Origin: a virus
IMG/VR virus record: IMGVR_UViG_3300036760_000568
Location: 1-27,300 of that record
Length of the DNA: 27,300 nt
Direction: 5' to 3' (one strand)
In this document: positions 1,496 through 22,291 of the stretch, one piece after another
Layout: every line of letters begins with the position of its first letter
Numbering within the stretch: position 1 is the stretch's first letter
Notes under the pieces: model-generated
Seen by the model: only the letters and a program-made list of their open reading frames with translations
Told to the model about the DNA's origin: nothing
Database searches by the model: none
Program-made: the position numbers and the translations under genes

Positions 1496-3681
1496 TCTAC
1501 GCAAACAACCCCGCGCTACAAGAGCTTCTGAAGCTGGGCGCAGCCGATTCTCGATTACAGGAAGCCAATAGTTTTGAGTTTTCGGATGTGGCTTTTGACG
1601 TGGCGGTGGCTGACGTTTCCAATCAGCACGGATATTTCAATGAGGAAGAAACGCGCACCCGCGCCGCCTACCGGCTGCTAACCCGGAAGCGGTCTGTGCC
1701 GCCAGTAGTAGGGGAGCTACCCGCGCCGATAGTAACCCCGCCATTCTGGAGACAAGAGAGAGTTTGGCGCTGGCTGCAAATAGCTTGGGCGATTGCGATT
1801 CTTGCCGCGCTGATTCTGATTGCCGCACACCCCGCGCACGCGCAGAGCTTTCGTGACCCGCACTACAGGTTGTTTTCCCAACCAGCAGCGCCTGACAGTC
1901 TGATTGTCCAATTCAAGAACGCAGGTTCCCTACTCGCCACACGCCCTGCCGGGCTCATTGTCTTCGATTGCGGCGCGAATATGAGCTGTTCGTTTTCTGG
2001 TTCCACCTTCTCACTCACGGCTGGAGCTGGTGGAGCTGTAGCGTGGTCAGGAATCAGCGCACCTACAGCCAACCTGAGCCTTGCTCACGCGGCATGGACA
2101 ACGACATTTACTTGGAACGCCGCGACGGGCGCTGGCGTGGACCTGTTCAATTTGGCGGACACGCTCAACAACACCGGTACCGGGCATCTTTTCAAAGTGA
2201 ATTTGGCGAGCGGCAGCGCCATGAAGCCAGTGCAGTTCTCGGTGAACGGGAACGGCGTGGAGATGAGCAACGCCGGGTTGCTAGCTGGGTTGGGCACGGG
2301 CGGGATCAACGCAACGCAGTACAAGGGCGGGACAGCGGCGGGGGTAGGAACCTGCACGAATCAGGCGGTTACGGCCACGGTGGATGCCGCGGCGCCCACC
2401 TGTACCACGATTACTTCGGCCTACACTAGTGGCACCTTCCCCGCAACCGCGCACAATCTCCTCTCCGCCAGCCACACGGATACTACAGTTACATCGGCGG
2501 TGCGCGGGAGCATCATTTACGCCAATCTAACTCCCGCATGGACGGCGCTCGGCGTGCAAACGGCTAACAAATACCCGAAGTGGGATGGGACAGACCTTGT
2601 AGCTTCCACGGGAGCGGCTTCCGGTGTGGGTACGCCAACGGTTTGCACTAACCAAGCAGTTACCGGATTTACGTTGAACGCCGATGCCGCGCCGACGAGC
2701 ACCTGCACTACGTTCACGCTGGCCTCCGCGCAGTTCGCCAATCAGGGCACCACGACAACGCTACTTCATGGAAATGGGGCTGGGAATCCTTCATGGGCGG
2801 CAGCCAGCCTCACCGCCGATGTCAGCGGGATTCTACCCACGGCCAATGGCGGAACGGGGATTGCGTTCTTTACCGCTGCGGGGCCAACCGTAGCGCGTGT
2901 TTACACCTTCCCCGACGCGGCGGCGACCGTTCTGACCAGCAACGCCGCTGTCACCATCGCGCAAGGCGGCACGGGCACGGGGAGCACGCTGACCGGGCTG
3001 GTGCGCGGCAGTGCCTCGGCCATGACTGCGGCGGAACTCTCCGGCGATGTAACCACCAACGGCTCGAACGCCGTCACGCTGGTATCGACGGTGCTGAAAG
3101 ATTCCAGCACGCACACCCTCACCAACAAAACTCTGGATGTGGAAGGCACCGGCAACAGCGTCACTACCGTCTCGAAGATTTGGCTGGAAGCGGCGGCCTG
3201 CCAGAATGCCACCGCCACGCTGATGTGGGACACGCCCCCCAGCAACCCCGCCGTGGCCGCCTGCATTACCGGCACCAACACGCAGAAGGGCGTGGCCGAC
3301 TTTGCGGATGGCGCGAACTCTCTTTCCATGCAGCGCACCCTAGCCCTGCCCTCGGACTTCACGGGCGCGGTGGACGTGAAATTCAAGTGGCTGACCACGG
3401 CCACCACCGGCGACGTGGTGTGGCAGATTGCCACCATCTGCGTGGCTGACGCGGAGACCGACGACCCCGCGTTCAATACTGCCTCGACGGTGACGGATAC
3501 CGCCAAGGGCACCGCCAACCAGACCAACGACGCCAGCGTCACCGGCATCACCATGACCGGCTGCGCCGCCGGAGAAGCGTGGCATATCAAGGTGCTGCGC
3601 GACCCGGCGCACGCTTCGGATACGCTGGCGGCCACCGCGCGGCTGCTCGGCGTCGAACTGACTGTGCGGAGGGCCCAGTGA
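1492..3681 (+). CDS. Tail-fibre-like protein with internal membrane anchor/signal sequence
   Basis: A 729-residue protein. Residues 1-90 are polar, lack cysteine and end in an Arg-rich stretch. A hydrophobic segment follows (AWAIAILAALILIAAHPAHA, about residues 99-118), ending in a signal-peptidase-like AHA|QS site, so the remainder could be released or displayed outside the inner membrane. The rest resembles phage fibre shafts: two repeats of the type C-T-N-Q-A-V...A-P-T-x-C-T-T, GGTG turns (LPTANGGTGI, IAQGGTGTG), and a C-terminal beta domain of roughly 140 residues from about residue 585, of the kind found at fibre tips and thought to bind sugars. The ten cysteines form five neighbouring pairs. 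It overlaps its neighbours as ATGA upstream and GTGA downstream. Fibre homology is inferred from repeats; the export signal is unusual for a virion fibre. Confidence 0.75.
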   Translation: MIYANNPALQELLKLGAADSRLQEANSFEFSDVAFDVAVADVSNQHGYFNEEETRTRAAYRLLTRKRSVPPVVGELPAPIVTPPFWRQERVWRWLQIAWAIAILAALILIAAHPAHAQSFRDPHYRLFSQPAAPDSLIVQFKNAGSLLATRPAGLIVFDCGANMSCSFSGSTFSLTAGAGGAVAWSGISAPTANLSLAHAAWTTTFTWNAATGAGVDLFNLADTLNNTGTGHLFKVNLASGSAMKPVQFSVNGNGVEMSNAGLLAGLGTGGINATQYKGGTAAGVGTCTNQAVTATVDAAAPTCTTITSAYTSGTFPATAHNLLSASHTDTTVTSAVRGSIIYANLTPAWTALGVQTANKYPKWDGTDLVASTGAASGVGTPTVCTNQAVTGFTLNADAAPTSTCTTFTLASAQFANQGTTTTLLHGNGAGNPSWAAASLTADVSGILPTANGGTGIAFFTAAGPTVARVYTFPDAAATVLTSNAAVTIAQGGTGTGSTLTGLVRGSASAMTAAELSGDVTTNGSNAVTLVSTVLKDSSTHTLTNKTLDVEGTGNSVTTVSKIWLEAAACQNATATLMWDTPPSNPAVAACITGTNTQKGVADFADGANSLSMQRTLALPSDFTGAVDVKFKWLTTATTGDVVWQIATICVADAETDDPAFNTASTVTDTAKGTANQTNDASVTGITMTGCAAGEAWHIKVLRDPAHASDTLAATARLLGVELTVRRAQ
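2341..2718 (+). repeat. Two cysteine-paired fibre repeats within the 1492-3681 gene
   Basis: Copy one (2341-2415) encodes GVGTCTNQAV...AAPTCTTIT. Copy two (2623-2718) encodes GVGTPTVCTNQAV...DAAPTSTCTTFT. Both have a Cys before TNQAVT and a second Cys after an A-P-T turn, typical of collagen-like or beta shaft repeats in phage and bacterial fibre proteins. Each copy is followed by a spacer with further beta segments. Confidence 0.6.
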
Positions 3682-4406
3682 TCCCGAGGCGTCGGGAGCG
3701 CCCTTACAAGGCGCTGGCGATAACCGTGGCGGTAATTCTGGCCGCCCTCCCCGTCTTAGCGACCACGCTGTTTTCAGATGATTTTAACCGCGCCGACAAC
3801 GACCTGCTGGGCGGCAACTGGGTGGAACGCGGCCCCTCTGTAGACTTCGATATCGTTACCGGCCGCGTGCAGGTGATGGCCTACGCTACGTCTCTGATAG
3901 GTGTCGCCTACAACCCCGCTGGAATTAGCAGCGCCGATTACACGGTGCAGGCCATTGTGAATCCCGCTACAGGGGATACCTTGACGGGAGTTTGTGGGCG
4001 TCGCGTAAATTTTAGTACCGCTGATTCAGACGGCTACATGGCTTTTATCCACGACACTGCAAACTCTCTCTTTCTTTATAAGCGTGTCAGCGGGACGTGG
4101 ACGGAGCTAGGCTCTTTCGCCGTCACTATCACCGCAGGAACCGATTACACGGTGAAGTTGTCCATGCAAGGTACGACCATCAAGGCATTCCTCGATGGAG
4201 TAGAGCGAATTTCAGTGACGGACAGTTCCTTGTCTGCCGCAGGCGACGCCGGTCTTTGCATCAATGGTGGAGCTGAAAACACAGGGATGCGTTGGGACGA
4301 TTTTCTCGTGGAGGATTTCGGCGCGCCCGCCACACCCCGGAAGCGTGCGGCGGTCGTGTTTGCAAAGGCTCATCTCCATCAGCCAAACAGGGAGGGAATA
4401 AAATGA
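3678..4406 (+). CDS. Secreted lectin-like (LamG/concanavalin-type) protein with signal peptide
   Basis: A start at GTG 3678 is preferred to upstream ATGs because it overlaps the previous stop as GTGA and begins a textbook Sec signal peptide: MIPRRRERPYK, then hydrophobic ALAITVAVILAALPVLA, then a likely cut near residues 28-31. The mature part begins with DDFNRAD...LGGNW, a signature of concanavalin/LamG-like jelly-roll modules that bind carbohydrate. It continues with the alternating beta strands of that fold (DYTVKLSMQGTTIKAFLDG and WDDFLVEDFG). It has only two cysteines (GVCG and GLCI). The 242-residue length suits one jelly roll. Its role may be binding of host surface glycans, as fibre partner or exported protein. 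The C-terminus is basic, and the next small ORF overlaps it by ATGA. Confidence 0.7.
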   Translation: MIPRRRERPYKALAITVAVILAALPVLATTLFSDDFNRADNDLLGGNWVERGPSVDFDIVTGRVQVMAYATSLIGVAYNPAGISSADYTVQAIVNPATGDTLTGVCGRRVNFSTADSDGYMAFIHDTANSLFLYKRVSGTWTELGSFAVTITAGTDYTVKLSMQGTTIKAFLDGVERISVTDSSLSAAGDAGLCINGGAENTGMRWDDFLVEDFGAPATPRKRAAVVFAKAHLHQPNREGIK

Positions 4407-16837: not shown

Positions 16838-19800
16838 ATGAGCGTTGCGGGCCTGGCAGACTTGGCGCTTGAAATCTTCGGAGGATTTGTGTCTCCAGAG
16901 GAGTTCGACCCTCAATCCTTGCCTCCGGGCGCAAGCTGGGACTGCCAGGACGTGCAATTCCCGCAAACGGGAGTGCGCACGCGACCCGGCCTGACAAACG
17001 TGCCGCTGAATTTTGGCGGTCCCAGCCCGCTATCGAATCAGGTCATCAACTACACGAAAACCTACCGTGACCCGCTTGGGAACAACCGTAATCTGTTTTT
17101 GGTCGCTAATTATCTGACCGGGCCAAGTGGGGCGTCGGGCAGAGTCTTGCAAGAATTTCCGCAAGGAAGCATTCCGCCGACGGCTCCTTATGCGGACGTT
17201 CCAGTAAATTTGTACTGTCATTCCGCCACTGCGTTTGGCCGGGAATATCTTGCATTCCACGATGGGAAGTTCGGAGCCTATAAACCGCTGCAATTCGATG
17301 GCACGAATTTTGACCGCGTAAGCCAGGTAGGGCCAGGCGAAGACCCCACTTGCGTGGATGTCACACCGACGGTGAAAAACATCGTTGCGACACCGAACGG
17401 AGCGAGCCAGTCCGGGAATATCGCTACCATCGTAACGACCGCCCCTCATGGATTTGTGATTGGCGATACGGTGACGGTGGCTGGCGTGGATGTGGGCGGA
17501 TACAACGTCACGGCACAAATTCTTAGCGTGCCAACGACGACGAGTTTTACCTACGCCAACTCAGTTACGGGATTGGCGGCTGGCGGAAACGGTACGGCAA
17601 CGCCCGCGGGGAATGTCACGGCGGGGAAACACGGCATCGCTCTGATTTTTGTCACGCGTTCTGGGGGGATGTATATCAGTCCGGGCACTACTTTCTGGAA
17701 CGCAGCGGGAGGCAATCAAGCAGCCGTTACGCTTCTCCATACGGGGCCAGCCAATGTGGTGAAGCGCATTGTCTGTTTCACCGCGGCTAATGGCGGTAAT
17801 TTCTATTACATGCCCGACCGCATGATCGTCAACGACAACACGACCGTTGCGGCGACTTTCGATTTTACGGACGCGGCGCTGACCGCCAGCACGAACGTGG
17901 ATCAGCTTTTCCAACAGATAGAACTTGGCGAATGCGCGGACGTAATTTTCTACGCGAACCGTTTGGCGTGGGTCGGCGAACGCAACAAAATGAACAACTG
18001 GACGAATTTGTCATTTGATGGCTGTTCGTTCAATGAACTTCTGGGATGGAAAAAAGATAACGCATCATTCTCTGGTGGTTCAGTGGGCCAGCCTGTAGCA
18101 GTGACTAATCCAGCAGGATTTGCTTACGGAATCTTCCCACAGAACCCTTTTTTGGGCACGGTCTGCATGATCACACAGGGCGCCGTACTGGATGTTTACG
18201 GTGTGCCGCGCATTAGGGCCGGCATTAACTACTCTGTGCGTGTTCGTTTGGCAACCGTCAATGTGGGAGGAGGGTTTCCGCCGAACGGGGCGCTGCACAT
18301 TGACTTAGCTGGTACAGGCGTAGCGACAACGGGATTAGTCGTCACGGTCGCCACGATGAACGCGCTCTTCGGCGGATTCGCAGACTACACGGCGGTTCTG
18401 ACAGCACCGCTCACTTTGATTCCGAATGACCTTGAGCTTCGAGTATATATGGGCGGCAACACATCGAACGTCGGAGAAATAATTGTGGATGACATCGAAA
18501 TCTATCCGACAGACCAGCCCTACAACTCCAGTTTGGTGCGTGCGAGCCGCTCGGGGCAGCCGGAAAACTACGATGGCGTAACCGGAATTATGCTGGTGGA
18601 GGAAAACAACGGCCAGCGCATCACGACCGCCTTAAAAATCAGAGAACAACTTTACTTCGTCAAAGAACGAAGCCTCTACGTCACTCAAGATGACGGCGTG
18701 AACGAGCCCAATCAGTGGCCGGTGACGGAAATCTCCAACAAGGTAGGGTCTGTCTCCGTAGAGGGCGCGGCGGTAGGCGAGGAATGGGCTACTTTGGCCG
18801 CGCGAGAAGGATTTTACATTACCGGCGGCGGAGAACCCGCGAAACTCTGCAAAGAAATTCAGCCGGATTGGGACCGCATCAACTGGCAGTACGGGCACAC
18901 GATCTGGACGAAGATTGACACGCGGAGACGCTTGATTCTGGTTGGTATTCCTTCAGGAAGCGCCATTTCTCCCAACAAAATTCTGACTTTGAGTTATCGC
19001 GCGCTGGATACTTGGGAAGAAATTGCTTCTCATGCGATGGTGGACTTTTCCGCGCGCACTGGAGCCAAGATCGCTATCGGGGACGCGCGGAAATGGTGCC
19101 CGTGGAACATTGCAGCAAATTGTTGCGGACTTATCGAGCGGAATGATGGGACGGCGCAAATCTTTCTGGGCAACGGCGCGGGGACAGGAAAACTCTACCA
19201 ACTGGACGACAACGCCACGTCCGACGACGGCGCGGCGATTGACAACTGGTACACGCCGTATTTCTTCCCGAGCCACCAGGAAGAACAGGGGCTTCAGCTT
19301 GGCGCGCACCGCAAACTTTTCGGCTATCTCTCTTTTCAAGCATCGGGAATTGGAAGTCTGAGTTTGACCGCTCGAACTCCAGCGGACATTGCCAATCCCG
19401 GTGTGCTTTCCCTGCCTTTTCCTGTGGCCGCGATTAACGCCGCCAGTCAGACGTTCTATACGGTGACAATTACGACAGCTTCGCCGCACGGATTTTCAGC
19501 CGGGCAGCGTGTGGTGGTTTCCGGCGTGACCGTTCCGGGCTACAACGCAACCGCGCAAATCATCGCCACACCCACGCCAACTACATTCACCTACGACTTG
19601 CTGGTTACGGGGCTTGCTGCGTCTGGTGGCGGGACCGCGCAAGTGATTCTCACGCCTTCGGCTACTTTGCTTGGCCCTGAAGTTCTTTCTCTCGCGCCGC
19701 AATGGGACGCGGAGCGCACCATTAATCTCGCGGGAGAAAGAATCTCCTTCAAGATGGGCACGAACGCGGTAGGGGAATGGTTCTGGCTCAAGAAGTTTGT

Positions 19801-19846
19801 TGTATCGGTAAAACGCCATCCTGCCTCGCCCGTGAGGGGAACCTGA
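16838..19846 (+). CDS. Large short-tail (nozzle/stabilisation-like) structural protein
   Basis: A 1002-residue protein, the largest in the window. It is strand-rich with repeated blocks of the type seen in tail nozzle proteins of short-tailed phages (T7 gp12 / P22 gp10 class): an entry region ASWDCQDVQFPQTGVRTRPG, and a propeller-like part with LYFVKERSLYVTQDDG, VGSVSVEGAAVGEEWATLAA and REGFYITGG. Two copies of a 60-residue beta module are embedded near residues 194-254 and 875-934. Many cysteines are scattered, and no signal peptide is present, unlike the fibre-like genes. It would extend the portal-connector channel outward. The family call rests on these motifs and on genomic position after the adaptor. 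Confidence 0.65.
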   Translation: MSVAGLADLALEIFGGFVSPEEFDPQSLPPGASWDCQDVQFPQTGVRTRPGLTNVPLNFGGPSPLSNQVINYTKTYRDPLGNNRNLFLVANYLTGPSGASGRVLQEFPQGSIPPTAPYADVPVNLYCHSATAFGREYLAFHDGKFGAYKPLQFDGTNFDRVSQVGPGEDPTCVDVTPTVKNIVATPNGASQSGNIATIVTTAPHGFVIGDTVTVAGVDVGGYNVTAQILSVPTTTSFTYANSVTGLAAGGNGTATPAGNVTAGKHGIALIFVTRSGGMYISPGTTFWNAAGGNQAAVTLLHTGPANVVKRIVCFTAANGGNFYYMPDRMIVNDNTTVAATFDFTDAALTASTNVDQLFQQIELGECADVIFYANRLAWVGERNKMNNWTNLSFDGCSFNELLGWKKDNASFSGGSVGQPVAVTNPAGFAYGIFPQNPFLGTVCMITQGAVLDVYGVPRIRAGINYSVRVRLATVNVGGGFPPNGALHIDLAGTGVATTGLVVTVATMNALFGGFADYTAVLTAPLTLIPNDLELRVYMGGNTSNVGEIIVDDIEIYPTDQPYNSSLVRASRSGQPENYDGVTGIMLVEENNGQRITTALKIREQLYFVKERSLYVTQDDGVNEPNQWPVTEISNKVGSVSVEGAAVGEEWATLAAREGFYITGGGEPAKLCKEIQPDWDRINWQYGHTIWTKIDTRRRLILVGIPSGSAISPNKILTLSYRALDTWEEIASHAMVDFSARTGAKIAIGDARKWCPWNIAANCCGLIERNDGTAQIFLGNGAGTGKLYQLDDNATSDDGAAIDNWYTPYFFPSHQEEQGLQLGAHRKLFGYLSFQASGIGSLSLTARTPADIANPGVLSLPFPVAAINAASQTFYTVTITTASPHGFSAGQRVVVSGVTVPGYNATAQIIATPTPTTFTYDLLVTGLAASGGGTAQVILTPSATLLGPEVLSLAPQWDAERTINLAGERISFKMGTNAVGEWFWLKKFVVSVKRHPASPVRGT
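17417..17599 (+). repeat. Embedded 60-residue beta module, copy 1
   Basis: Encodes residues about 194-254 of the 1002-residue tail protein. The pattern is HGF-x2-GD-x-V-x-VAGV, then GGYNVTAQI, PTTTSFTY and TGLAAGGNGTA. It matches copy 2 (19460-19639) at about half of positions or more by eye, including the order of all four blocks. Confidence 0.7.
19460..19639 (+). repeat. Embedded 60-residue beta module, copy 2
   Basis: Encodes residues about 875-934 of the same tail protein: SPHGFSAGQRVVVSGV, PGYNATAQI, PTPTTFTY, TGLAASGGGTA. It is separated from copy 1 by about 620 residues. The DNA sequences have diverged, so the duplication or module capture is old. Confidence 0.7.
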
Positions 19847-20379
19847 TGCTTGTCTGCCCTTATCTGAATGCGATTCGCCAGGACTACCCGGAAACCTACG
19901 AGGACTTAAACAAGATCGTGCGCGCGATCAACGACCTCATACTCCAACAGGGCGGGGCGGCGGTTTCCGTGGCGACCGGATTGCTCTTGGTGACGGCGGC
20001 GAACGGCATCATCGACATTCAGATCAACGACTCGACTCCGCTCAAAGGCGAAGAGTATTTTATTGAGTACGATACCTCGCCCTCATTTGCCAACGCGCGG
20101 GCTGCCACGCATGGAGTGAACCGCAACTACCGTGACGCGACTTTGGCGAATCTCACCACCTACTGGCGGTATTACAAAAGTTCCGCGCTGGGAGCGAGAA
20201 GCAATTACGTCTATTTCGGGACGCAAGAAAATCCCACCGCCGTTGTGCCCGGCCTGTTTTCGATTGTGGCGGGTGGCCCTACTCCTTCGGATTCGACGGG
20301 CACAGGCACAGCGCAAACGGGCGGAGACGGCTACGGGAAAATCATCAATCCCGCAGATCAAGGACTTGAACTGGCATGA
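19846..20379 (+). CDS. Hypothetical virion-associated protein
   Basis: ATG 19846 shares a base with the previous stop and is preferred over the upstream in-frame ATG 19777, which would overlap the tail gene by 70 bases. The 177-residue product starts with a helical part (PETYEDLNKIVRAINDLILQ). It then has a fibronectin-like beta module (IIDIQINDSTPLKGEEYFIE...TTYWRYYKSSALG) of the sort used as a linker in tail proteins, and a Gly/Thr-rich end. It is probably a minor tail or fibre-adaptor protein. The stop overlaps the next gene as ATGA. Confidence 0.65.
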   Translation: MLVCPYLNAIRQDYPETYEDLNKIVRAINDLILQQGGAAVSVATGLLLVTAANGIIDIQINDSTPLKGEEYFIEYDTSPSFANARAATHGVNRNYRDATLANLTTYWRYYKSSALGARSNYVYFGTQENPTAVVPGLFSIVAGGPTPSDSTGTGTAQTGGDGYGKIINPADQGLELA

Positions 20380-20786
20380 TTGGTGAAACGACAGTCCGGC
20401 CTTACAGGGAAAGCGACCTGGCCGCGCTCAAAGGCATTTTTGAGCACGACGGCTTTGCATTTGATTTCCCAAACTTGAGCGACCCCATATTTGTGCGGCG
20501 CTTGGTTTCTGAGAATGGAACGGTGCGCGGTGGGCTAGTAGCCAAGATCACGGCGGAGATGTTTCTGTTTCTTGACAAGCAAGTGGGCACGCCGGAAGAG
20601 AGAATGTGGAGCTTTTTGGAATTGCACGAAACGATGCGTGACGAGCTAACGCGCTTGGGCTTGGCCGACGCGAACCTGTGGCTCCCTCCACAACTTGAAA
20701 AGTCTTTTGGTAAAAGGTTAATGCGCTTGGGTTGGGAAAAAGCGTTGTGGCCAGCCTACGTTTTCGACCTGGACAAGGCACGATGA
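20376..20786 (+). CDS. GNAT-like N-acetyltransferase fold protein
   Basis: A 136-residue protein whose N-terminus TVRPYRESDLAALKGIFEHD matches the first strand and helix of GNAT acetyltransferases. A later block (VRGGLVAKITAEMFLFLD) corresponds to the central strands, and the end (LEKSFGKRLMRLGWEKALW) to the last helix-strand unit. The usual acetyl-CoA loop (Q/R-x-x-G-x-G/A) is not evident, so catalysis is doubtful. GNAT-like proteins of this size occur in the tail modules of some short-tailed phages with no known substrate. It is coupled to the previous gene (ATGA). Its last 31 bases overlap the antisense HNH gene. Confidence 0.6.
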   Translation: MIGETTVRPYRESDLAALKGIFEHDGFAFDFPNLSDPIFVRRLVSENGTVRGGLVAKITAEMFLFLDKQVGTPEERMWSFLELHETMRDELTRLGLADANLWLPPQLEKSFGKRLMRLGWEKALWPAYVFDLDKAR

Positions 20787-21403
20787 AACTTCTGATGCTC
20801 AGCGTGACCACTGAAAAGCCTAAGATTACCTGGTCGCGCATCCGCCCTATTCTGGTTGATGTGGTGGACTACTTCACGGGGCAGCAGTTGTCTTTGCAGC
20901 TTTCGCTCCATCACAAGACGATGGAGTCTGAAGCAAATAACGCGGCCATTTTTAGAAATGGCAAAGCACGGATAACCCCAATTCATAAAAATAGAATGAA
21001 CTCCAATGACCGCAGACAATCCAGATTCGCGCTTGATTTGTTCCTGAACTTCTTGGGTCAATTTGATCGCTTTCTTCGTGGTGTGAATCGCCTTCAACTT
21101 TTCACCACGTTTTTTGAGCTTGTAGTGCTGCTGGCAAAAACCAAAAGCAAGGCGCTTGCGATCGCAGGCCGGGAATTTGCAGAAGCGAGAGCGATACATA
21201 GGACGAATGGTAATGGCATGGAGCCTCGCCCCATACACATGCCTTTGCTGATAGTGGGCACGGCAAAGTCCATGACCAAAGTGAAGGCGTATGCAGCCTC
21301 GGAATGCGCATTTTCTAGAATGATAGCGGCACAAGAATCGCTTAGGCCCATAAGCTCTCTGCTGGGGTTTTCTGCATCCGCGAATTTGGCAGATGAGTTC
21401 CAT
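20756..21403 (-). CDS. HNH endonuclease with three zinc-knuckle repeats (mobile/homing type)
   Basis: A 215-residue protein on the strand opposite to the late operon. The N-terminal half has three Cys-rich knuckles: C5-x4-C10-x14-C25-x2-H28, C32-x4-C37-x9-C47-x2-H50 and C75-x4-C80-x9-C90-x2-H93. The last two share the pattern C-x4-C-x7-G-x-C-x2-H-Y and probably bind zinc and DNA. The C-terminal 50 residues are a clear HNH nuclease of the HNH_3 type: RLVMERKL, EVVHHINQNRADARPGNLRL, then HAEHQKFH, with His180/His181 and Asn193 as likely catalytic and metal residues. It would nick or cut DNA, possibly to spread its own gene. GC looks lower than in the surroundings. A near-perfect promoter lies right in front of its ATG. 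Confidence 0.9.
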   Translation of the reverse strand: MELICQIRGCRKPQQRAYGPKRFLCRYHSRKCAFRGCIRLHFGHGLCRAHYQQRHVYGARLHAITIRPMYRSRFCKFPACDRKRLAFGFCQQHYKLKKRGEKLKAIHTTKKAIKLTQEVQEQIKRESGLSAVIGVHSIFMNWGYPCFAISKNGRVICFRLHRLVMERKLQRQLLPREVVHHINQNRADARPGNLRLFSGHAEHQKFHRALSRSKT

Positions 21404-21411
21404 CGCACGGA

Positions 21412-21441
21412 ATTATACAGCAATGATCTGAGTCCTATCAA
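21412..21441 (-). promoter_or_regulatory. Strong sigma70-like promoter for the HNH gene (leaderless)
   Basis: Read on the minus strand: TTGATA (21441-21436), an 18-base spacer, TATAAT (21417-21412, perfect), then 8 bases to the ATG at 21403. Transcription would begin about 2 bases before the start codon, leaving no room for a Shine-Dalgarno sequence. Confidence 0.75.
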
Positions 21442-21444
21442 GGC

Positions 21445-21461
21445 GGGAGGGTAACTCTACG
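21445..21461 (+). promoter_or_regulatory. Ribosome site facing an ACG start codon
   Basis: GGGAGGG (21445-21451) is followed by a 7-base spacer and ACG (21459-21461), in frame with the gene ending at 22016. No ATG, GTG or TTG occurs in this frame before ATG 21648, although the intervening sequence reads as convincing protein. ACG differs from ATG by one base. Confidence 0.6.
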
Positions 21462-22016
21462 GCACGCGGTCAAAAGCAATTAGCCACCAAGCAGCTCGAC
21501 ATTACCAACAAAGAAGCTGGTGTACAGAGCGCGAACGCGCAATCGCTGTACGGAATTGCGAGGCCAGCGTATGAAGCCGGGCTCGACAGCGGGTACAGTC
21601 CGCTCGAACAATCCAACATTCGAACTTCAGCTTTAGAGGGCGCGGAGATGCCTTTCGCATCAGCAGCGGACACTTTGGAAAACCGCGCCGCACGCACACG
21701 CAACACGGCGGGACTGAATGAGACTTTAGACCTCATGGCGCGGGACCGCTCAAAGGCGGCTTCGGGCGCGGGCCGCGACGTGGAAACGCTGTTTGCGAAT
21801 GAGAAACAGCGGCGCCGCGAAGAATCTCTCAAGGGCTTGGCGAATCTGTATGGCGTGAGCACCGACGCGATGGCGAAACTCTACGGCTTGGGGCCGGGAA
21901 CGCTGGGAGCACGGGCGGCTGGCGGCGGCTGGGCGCAAGGGTTTGGCGATGTGGCAGGAGGAATCGCCGGAGTTATGAATGCGGCAACCGGTGCCTACAA
22001 CGCGAGTAAACCATGA
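21459..22016 (+). CDS. Internal virion / minor structural protein, probable ACG start
   Basis: The first conventional start is ATG 21648 (122 residues), but the frame is open and protein-like upstream: (M)ARGQKQLATKQLDITNKEAG, then ANAQSLYGIARPAYEAGL. This is the Q-rich, helical N-terminus usual for minor internal proteins of short-tailed phages. The frame starts at an ACG correctly spaced from GGGAGGG, giving 185 residues. The middle is a basic helix (NRAARTRNTAGLNETLDLMA, then FANEKQRRREESLKGLANLY). The end is Gly/Ala-rich and weakly hydrophobic (FGDVAGGIAGVMNAATGAYN), compatible with membrane-active ejection proteins. It lies just after the antisense HNH gene, whose arrival may have altered the start. 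The next gene overlaps by ATGA. Confidence 0.65.
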   Translation, partial: TARGQKQLATKQLDITNKEAGVQSANAQSLYGIARPAYEAGLDSGYSPLEQSNIRTSALEGAEMPFASAADTLENRAARTRNTAGLNETLDLMARDRSKAASGAGRDVETLFANEKQRRREESLKGLANLYGVSTDAMAKLYGLGPGTLGARAAGGGWAQGFGDVAGGIAGVMNAATGAYNASKP

Positions 22017-22291
22017 GCATGTTCAATCGAAGAAACGGCATGAGGTTTGACCCTTACGGCGCGTCGCAACCGGAAGTGCTGAACGAAGCGCCGAACCTGA
22101 ACGCGCTCTACGGCCTCCCACCGCAACCGGTCAGCGGAGAAGTCCCTGGCTTGCAGAATCCGGGCTTGACCCCTGCTCCGGCCGCAGGCTTGCAGACTCC
22201 AGGGATCACTCCCGCGCCGCAAGGCTTGCCTTACATGGGTGGCCGCGCAAAACGGCGCACGGAGAATTTCGGCCCGTACAGGTTTGATTAG
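22013..22291 (+). CDS. Proline-rich hypothetical protein with short tandem repeat
   Basis: A 92-residue protein coupled by ATGA to the preceding gene. It is mostly low-complexity, with Pro, Gly and Leu dominating. A 12-13-residue unit occurs twice in tandem (GLQNPGLTPAPAA, GLQTPGITPAPQ). The ends are basic (FNRRNGMRFDPYG; RAKRRTENFG). Likely an extended or disordered linker-type minor virion protein among the internal-protein genes. No family recognised. Confidence 0.6.
   Translation: MSMFNRRNGMRFDPYGASQPEVLNEAPNLNALYGLPPQPVSGEVPGLQNPGLTPAPAAGLQTPGITPAPQGLPYMGGRAKRRTENFGPYRFD
22148..22222 (+). repeat. In-frame tandem repeat, 39 + 36 bases
   Basis: Two adjacent units (22148-22186 and 22187-22222), each starting GGCTTGCAGA, encode the Gly-Leu-Gln...Thr-Pro-Ala-Pro unit of the 92-residue protein. 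The second unit is one codon shorter. Confidence 0.7.

What the first reader, a model, noticed from the sequence alone, without database searches (positions are those of the whole stretch)
21459..21650. Structural gene apparently starting at ACG
Strong protein-like reading (Q-rich N-terminus typical of internal virion proteins) extends 63 codons upstream of the first ATG, back to ACG at ideal distance from GGGAGGG. No other start exists in that frame: the upstream stop lies just before the ribosome site. The neighbouring HNH gene ends only about 55 bases away, so the region may have been reshaped by its insertion, or ACG may deliberately lower expression of a minor protein.
Basis: partly seen in the sequence, partly recalled or inferred. 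Interest (0 to 1): 0.6.

Follow-up and report, generated by a model that had tools for sequence, protein, structure and literature searches.

The report
Phage gene starting at ACG
A phage of soil bacteria has an ACG triplet exactly where 65 of 67 related genes have a normal start codon, and a second, distantly related phage has ACG there too, so this is probably a real and very unusual start codon rather than a sequencing mistake, although no protein has been measured.

Summary
ACG 21459-21461 lies 8 nt after GGAGG, a stop closes the frame just upstream, and no ATG, GTG or TTG precedes ATG 21648. Residues 2-63 are real coding sequence: codon usage equals that of known genes, and they alone match the family profile (E 8e-9; best of 2000 shuffles 0.02).

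I found 67 distinct homologues with a readable start, in IMG/VR contigs and in genomes of one Acidobacteriota order. All start at the same place: ATG 63, GTG 2, ACG 2. The second ACG is in L067 (IMGVR_UViG_3300021437_000033), 32% identical, with the same layout (GGGAGGGTAGCTATACGGC) and no HNH gene. A sequencing error is therefore very unlikely.

The HNH gene did insert just upstream, at CAAGGC, cutting the last codons off a GNAT-like gene, but it did not create the ACG.

Best explanation: fMet initiation at ACG driven by a strong Shine-Dalgarno, in L067 and in the window's ancestor probably helped by ribosomes ending the upstream gene 4 nt before. Use of ACG by ribosomes, and any deliberate lowering of expression, is inferred. 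The protein may be a minor ejection protein. Only two cases; no reads, no proteomics.

The parts
21459..22016 (+). Gene with apparent ACG start, 185 codons plus TGA stop; predicted helical, Q/A-rich, possible minor ejection (internal virion) protein
   Evidence: 67 homologues start at the aligned position; coding score
21459..21461 (+). ACG in the place of the family's start codon
   Evidence: same in L067 at 19026-19028
21445..21451 (+). GGGAGGG, Shine-Dalgarno (GGAGG 21446-21450, spacer 8 nt)
   Evidence: sequence; GGAGG or a close variant precedes the start in most homologues
21452..21454 (+). TAA that ended the GNAT-like gene before the HNH insertion; L067 has TAG at the matching place, 4 nt before its ACG
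   Evidence: empty-site translation ...DLDKAGG*; L067 ...YELREGG*
21462..21647 (+). N-terminal 62 codons between ACG and the first ATG, conserved coding sequence that standard gene callers would leave out
20376..20786 (+). Upstream 136-aa protein, GNAT acetyltransferase-like by predicted fold; in relatives its stop is next to the target's start
   Evidence: synteny; Foldseek top hits all GNAT enzymes, E about 4e-3
20780..21444 (.). 665-bp insertion flanked by CAAGGC copies (20774-20779 and 21439-21444), G+C 0.486 against 0.578 for the window
20756..21403 (-). HNH endonuclease gene carried by the insertion (its last codons overlap the end of the GNAT-like gene)
   Evidence: Pfam HNH_3 E 7e-7, PHROG HNH E 1.5e-11; absent from all relatives compared
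22013..22291 (+). Next gene (92 aa); its ATG overlaps the target's stop (ATGA), so it may be translationally coupled to the target

Best explanation
The gene starts at ACG 21459. Initiator fMet-tRNA pairs imperfectly with ACG in the P site, held there by a strong, well-spaced Shine-Dalgarno (GGAGG, 8 nt). The ACG is a real feature of this initiation site, not an error: L067 has it at the same spot in the same short context. In L067, and in the window's ancestor before the HNH gene came in, the stop codon of the GNAT-like gene lies between the Shine-Dalgarno and the ACG (TAR-N4-ACG), so ribosomes finishing that gene would be delivered onto the ACG (termination-reinitiation). In the window the HNH insertion moved that gene's stop 672 nt away and left the Shine-Dalgarno and ACG intact. 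The expected result is a low but sufficient yield of a minor structural protein. Shown: position, coding N-terminus, conserved start site, ACG in two divergent contigs, empty HNH site. Inferred: use of ACG by the ribosome, coupling, low yield, ejection role.
For: Coding potential and homology begin at the ACG. All 67 homologues with a readable start begin there: ATG 63, GTG 2, ACG 2. L067, 32% identical, has ACG with 13 of the 17 preceding bases identical; only one other of 1448 pairs under 45% identity is as alike, mean 5.2. ACG is the only near-AUG codon after the Shine-Dalgarno in both. GNAT-like stop and target start lie within -8 to +4 nt in eight relatives. In the window and L067 this is the only homology-supported gene whose homology typically begins well before its first usual start codon.
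Against: Two cases only. ACG gave 0.1-1.5% of ATG in an E. coli RFP reporter (PMC6925171). In the window the coupling to the GNAT-like gene is broken by the insertion. No reads, transcript or protein data. The window and L067 do not form one clade, so long-term conservation of ACG by descent is not shown.
Confidence: 0.72

Rival explanations
1. The real start is another codon: ATG 21648 in the window (122-aa product), TTG 19068 in L067 (159-aa product); the stretch from the ACG on is a relic.
For: These are the first usual start codons in each frame. A GAGGG lies 8 nt before ATG 21648.
Against: Residues 2-63 keep coding bias and family similarity; no homologue starts there; the two supposed starts do not correspond to each other. 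For L067 only 14 residues are at stake, too few to test alone.
Confidence: 0.12
2. The base is wrong or variable: a sequencing or assembly error, or a T/C polymorphism with ATG as the common form.
For: One base separates ACG from ATG; metagenome contigs carry some errors; no near-identical contig was found to check against.
Against: A divergent contig from its own assembly has ACG at the same place in the same rare context.
Confidence: 0.06
3. The start codon was lost by mutation and the gene is failing or silent in this phage, for instance after the HNH insertion.
For: The HNH insertion lies directly upstream and broke the link to the GNAT-like gene.
Against: The frame and its codon usage are intact; L067 has ACG without the insertion and with an intact frame.
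Confidence: 0.06
4. The target is made as a +1 frameshift fusion with the GNAT-like protein at GGG TAR, so no start codon is needed.
For: In L067 the GNAT-like frame ends GGA GGG TAG, and a +1 shift there enters the target frame just before the ACG. The window keeps GGA GGG TAA at the matching place.
Against: In the window the GNAT-like frame now stops 672 nt upstream, and only an antisense shadow frame reaches the site. The other homologues start on their own with ATG or GTG.
Confidence: 0.04

Closest known systems
Non-canonical start codons of bacterial genes (GUG and UUG; AUU of infC and pcnB, from general knowledge)
   Same: Initiation by fMet-tRNA with a mismatch to the start codon, backed by a strong Shine-Dalgarno, with a lower yield.
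   Different: ACG mismatches the middle base and is nearly inactive in an E. coli reporter (0.1-1.5% of ATG, PMC6925171). The ten literature searches returned no natural ACG-started phage or bacterial gene in their listings; hits concern plastids, mitochondria and eukaryotic viruses.
ACG starts in plastids and eukaryotic viruses
   Same: ACG at the start position of a structural or other protein.
   Different: Plastid ACG is commonly edited to AUG in RNA (PMC9845219), and eukaryotic viruses use scanning ribosomes; neither applies to a phage with a Shine-Dalgarno.
T7-type internal virion (ejection) proteins, gp14-like
   Same: Small Q/A-rich helical protein placed after the tail tube genes and a small GNAT-like gene, before two larger proteins (gene order; comparison from general knowledge).
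   Different: No Pfam, PHROG or PDB sequence match to T7 proteins for the window protein; one of 16 family members hits a PHROG 'pilot protein for DNA ejection' at E 1.2e-4.
Free-standing phage HNH homing endonucleases
   Same: HNH domain; lower G+C; sits between two conserved genes that are adjacent in relatives.
   Different: The end of a neighbouring gene was changed; flanked by a 6-bp repeat; cleavage not tested.

Membership tests
Genes with a non-canonical bacterial start codon | Coding sequence and homology begin at the codon, not at a later ATG, GTG or TTG | tested here: met
Genes with a non-canonical bacterial start codon | No usual start codon between the upstream stop and that codon | tested here: met
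   same in L067
Genes with a non-canonical bacterial start codon | Well-spaced Shine-Dalgarno | tested here: met
   GGAGG with 8-nt spacer in the window and L067
Genes with a non-canonical bacterial start codon | Base confirmed and not a sequencing error | tested here: inconclusive
   ACG recurs in a divergent contig; reads not available
Genes with a non-canonical bacterial start codon | Protein shown to start at that codon | not testable with these tools
   needs reporter, initiation profiling or N-terminal peptides
T7-type internal virion (ejection) protein, gp14-like | Sequence similarity to a known ejection protein | tested here: inconclusive
   one of 16 members hits a PHROG pilot protein at E 1.2e-4; the window protein hits none
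T7-type internal virion (ejection) protein, gp14-like | Place in the gene order after tail tube genes | tested here: met
T7-type internal virion (ejection) protein, gp14-like | Present in the virion and ejected with DNA | not testable with these tools
   needs virion proteomics
Free-standing phage HNH homing endonuclease | HNH domain | tested here: met
Free-standing phage HNH homing endonuclease | Uninterrupted site in relatives | tested here: met
Free-standing phage HNH homing endonuclease | Cleavage of the uninterrupted site | not testable with these tools
   needs an enzyme assay

The most novel reading that the evidence does not exclude
ACG is a selected start codon in this phage family: a start with a middle-base mismatch kept in two deep lineages, together with its Shine-Dalgarno and the stop codon of the upstream gene, as a throttle that makes a minor ejection protein depend on ribosomes arriving from the upstream gene. 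Acidobacteriota ribosomes may also use ACG better than those of E. coli.
Probability: 0.22. Interest if true: 0.72.

Novelty: new variant of a known kind. Interest (0 to 1): 0.5.

Why it matters
ACG is not accepted as a start by the usual gene callers and is nearly inactive in E. coli reporters. A natural ACG start shared by two divergent phages would mean that such callers cut 63 and 14 residues off these proteins. It would also give a natural site to measure how far Shine-Dalgarno strength and termination-reinitiation can rescue a weak start codon, in a host phylum whose translation initiation is little studied. The site is small and easy to test with a reporter.

Tried and rejected
Direct search of IMG/VR and phage records with the window protein found nothing; relatives came only through neighbouring tail and capsid genes. 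A degenerate pattern for the same N-terminus with ATG or ACG found no near-identical contig. A scan for other GGAGG-N7/8-ACG-Ala-Arg-Gly-Gln sites gave 33 hits; only L067's own contig belongs to the family. The phylum sample gave no match beyond the centre genome, and the order searches added no new members. Phage tRNAs that might read ACG: none in the window or the L067 locus. Rfam found nothing at 20300-22100, so no intron. The AlphaFold model of the target is too weak to search with (pLDDT 55, pTM 0.29). RNA folding gave no special structure at the start. A 224-codon plus-strand frame antisense to HNH (20783-21454) was considered as a coding link and set aside as a shadow frame: it lies codon against codon, with a chance of about 0.07 of being open. 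C-to-U RNA editing, as in plastids, has no support here. A first version of the start audit that used the earliest alignment start was too noisy; the median was used.

Full report
The observation. Window 21429-22016 reads TGA GTC CTA TCA AGG CGG GAG GGT AAC TCT ACG GCA CGC GGT CAA and on to TGA. ACG stands at 21459-21461, GGAGG ends 8 nt before it, and the first ATG in the frame is at 21648. The window is a 27.3-kb IMG/VR virus record.

Is the N-terminus real? Against the codon usage of ten other genes of the window, codons 21462-21647 score 0.277 bits per codon; known genes average 0.280 (5th percentile 0.095), the other five frames score -0.28 to -0.42, and the same frame upstream of the ACG scores -0.65. 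A family profile built without the window and L067 finds residues 2-63 alone at E 7.8e-9; the best of 2000 shuffles gives 0.02. So the coding sequence begins near the ACG, not at ATG 21648.

Relatives. Nothing matched the window protein directly. The second tail tube protein and a capsid profile brought in relatives with the same gene order: capsid, tail tube A, tail tube B, a 200-aa protein, a GNAT-like protein, target. Profile searches then found the family in 48 of 95 genomes of one Acidobacteriota order, in 55 of 399 of its class, and in none of the phylum sample beyond the centre genome. Of 67 distinct homologues with a readable start, 63 begin with ATG, 2 with GTG (L023, L132) and 2 with ACG (the window and L067), at the aligned position before the conserved [AGS]-Arg-[GAS].

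The second ACG. L067 (IMGVR_UViG_3300021437_000033) reads GAGAGGGAGGGTAGCTAT ACG GCG AGA GGC CAA. Its GNAT-like gene ends with TAG 19019-19021 and the ACG follows 4 nt later at 19026; there is no HNH gene. The 17 nt before the ACG are 13/17 identical to the window although the proteins are 32% identical; of 1448 homologue pairs under 45% identity only one other reaches that, and the mean is 5.2. Two independent errors at the same base in the same rare context are not credible. In the trees the window branches beside the MARG-type relatives (L077, L016-L023) and L067 beside the MGRG-type relatives, so ACG lies on two deep branches. Either it arose twice, or it is old and was replaced by ATG more than once, or the short start region was exchanged; I cannot decide.

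The HNH insertion. The GNAT-like stop and the target start lie within -8 to +4 nt in L017-L019, L021, L023, L077, L070 and L067, and 29-174 nt apart in L005-L007 and L009. In the window they are 672 nt apart. Joining the flanks of 20780-21444, between two copies of CAAGGC, gives a GNAT-like C-terminus ...WPAYVFDLDKAGG*, matching L067 ...WTDYMYELREGG*. The insert has G+C 0.486 against 0.578 and carries an HNH gene on the minus strand. It therefore came into an arrangement that already had this Shine-Dalgarno, and L067 shows that ACG does not depend on it.

Audit. Among the homology-supported plus-strand genes of the window (about 16) and L067 (about 12), leaving out frames nested in longer genes, the target is the only one whose homology typically (median alignment start) begins well before the first ATG, GTG or TTG.

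Mechanism. Inferred: Shine-Dalgarno-driven fMet initiation at ACG, helped in L067 and in the window's ancestor by termination-reinitiation from the stop 4 nt before. In an E. coli RFP reporter ACG gave 0.1-1.5% of ATG (PMC6925171), so the yield should be low unless context or host helps. The next gene's ATG overlaps the target's stop (22013-22016), so the effect may pass on. The product is small, Q/A-rich and predicted helical at low confidence. Its place in the gene order and one weak hit of a family member to a DNA-ejection PHROG suggest a minor ejection protein; this is not shown. The GNAT label of the upstream protein rests on a predicted fold, not on a Pfam match.

Rivals. A start at ATG 21648 or TTG 19068 conflicts with the coding N-terminus and with every homologue. 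Sequencing error conflicts with L067. A +1 frameshift fusion with the GNAT-like gene is possible on paper in L067 but not in the window, where that gene stops 672 nt upstream. A failing gene conflicts with intact frames in two lineages.

Verdict. Literature searches for ACG starts in phages and bacteria listed only plastid, mitochondrial and eukaryotic-virus cases and reporter work; the library is incomplete, so this is weak evidence of novelty.

Noticed in passing
loci L092-L155: The target family, as prophages or phage remnants, occurs in 48 of 95 genomes of one Acidobacteriota order (that of Candidatus Acidiferrum typicum and gp2 acidobacteria), but not in the phylum sample outside it: a very common phage group with no relative in the phage record collection.
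   Followed up: partly
window 20783-21454: A 224-codon plus-strand frame runs antisense to the whole HNH gene, opens with an ATGA overlap at the GNAT-like stop and closes with TAA 4 nt before the ACG. Probably a shadow frame (chance about 0.07), but it would keep ribosomes arriving at the ACG if translated.
   Followed up: partly
window 16838-19846; L002, L006, L067: The large tail protein carries repeated modules of about 55-90 residues (e.g. residues 183-240 and 864-934) whose number varies between relatives.
   Followed up: no
L002 13756-15275; L008 about 2300-4000: The junction between the GNAT-like gene and the target holds other inserted sequence in some relatives, so it looks like a recurrent insertion site.
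   Followed up: no
L023 19119; L132: Two family members start with GTG, one of them (L023) overlapping the stop of the GNAT-like gene (TAGTG), so this start site tolerates weaker codons.
   Followed up: partly
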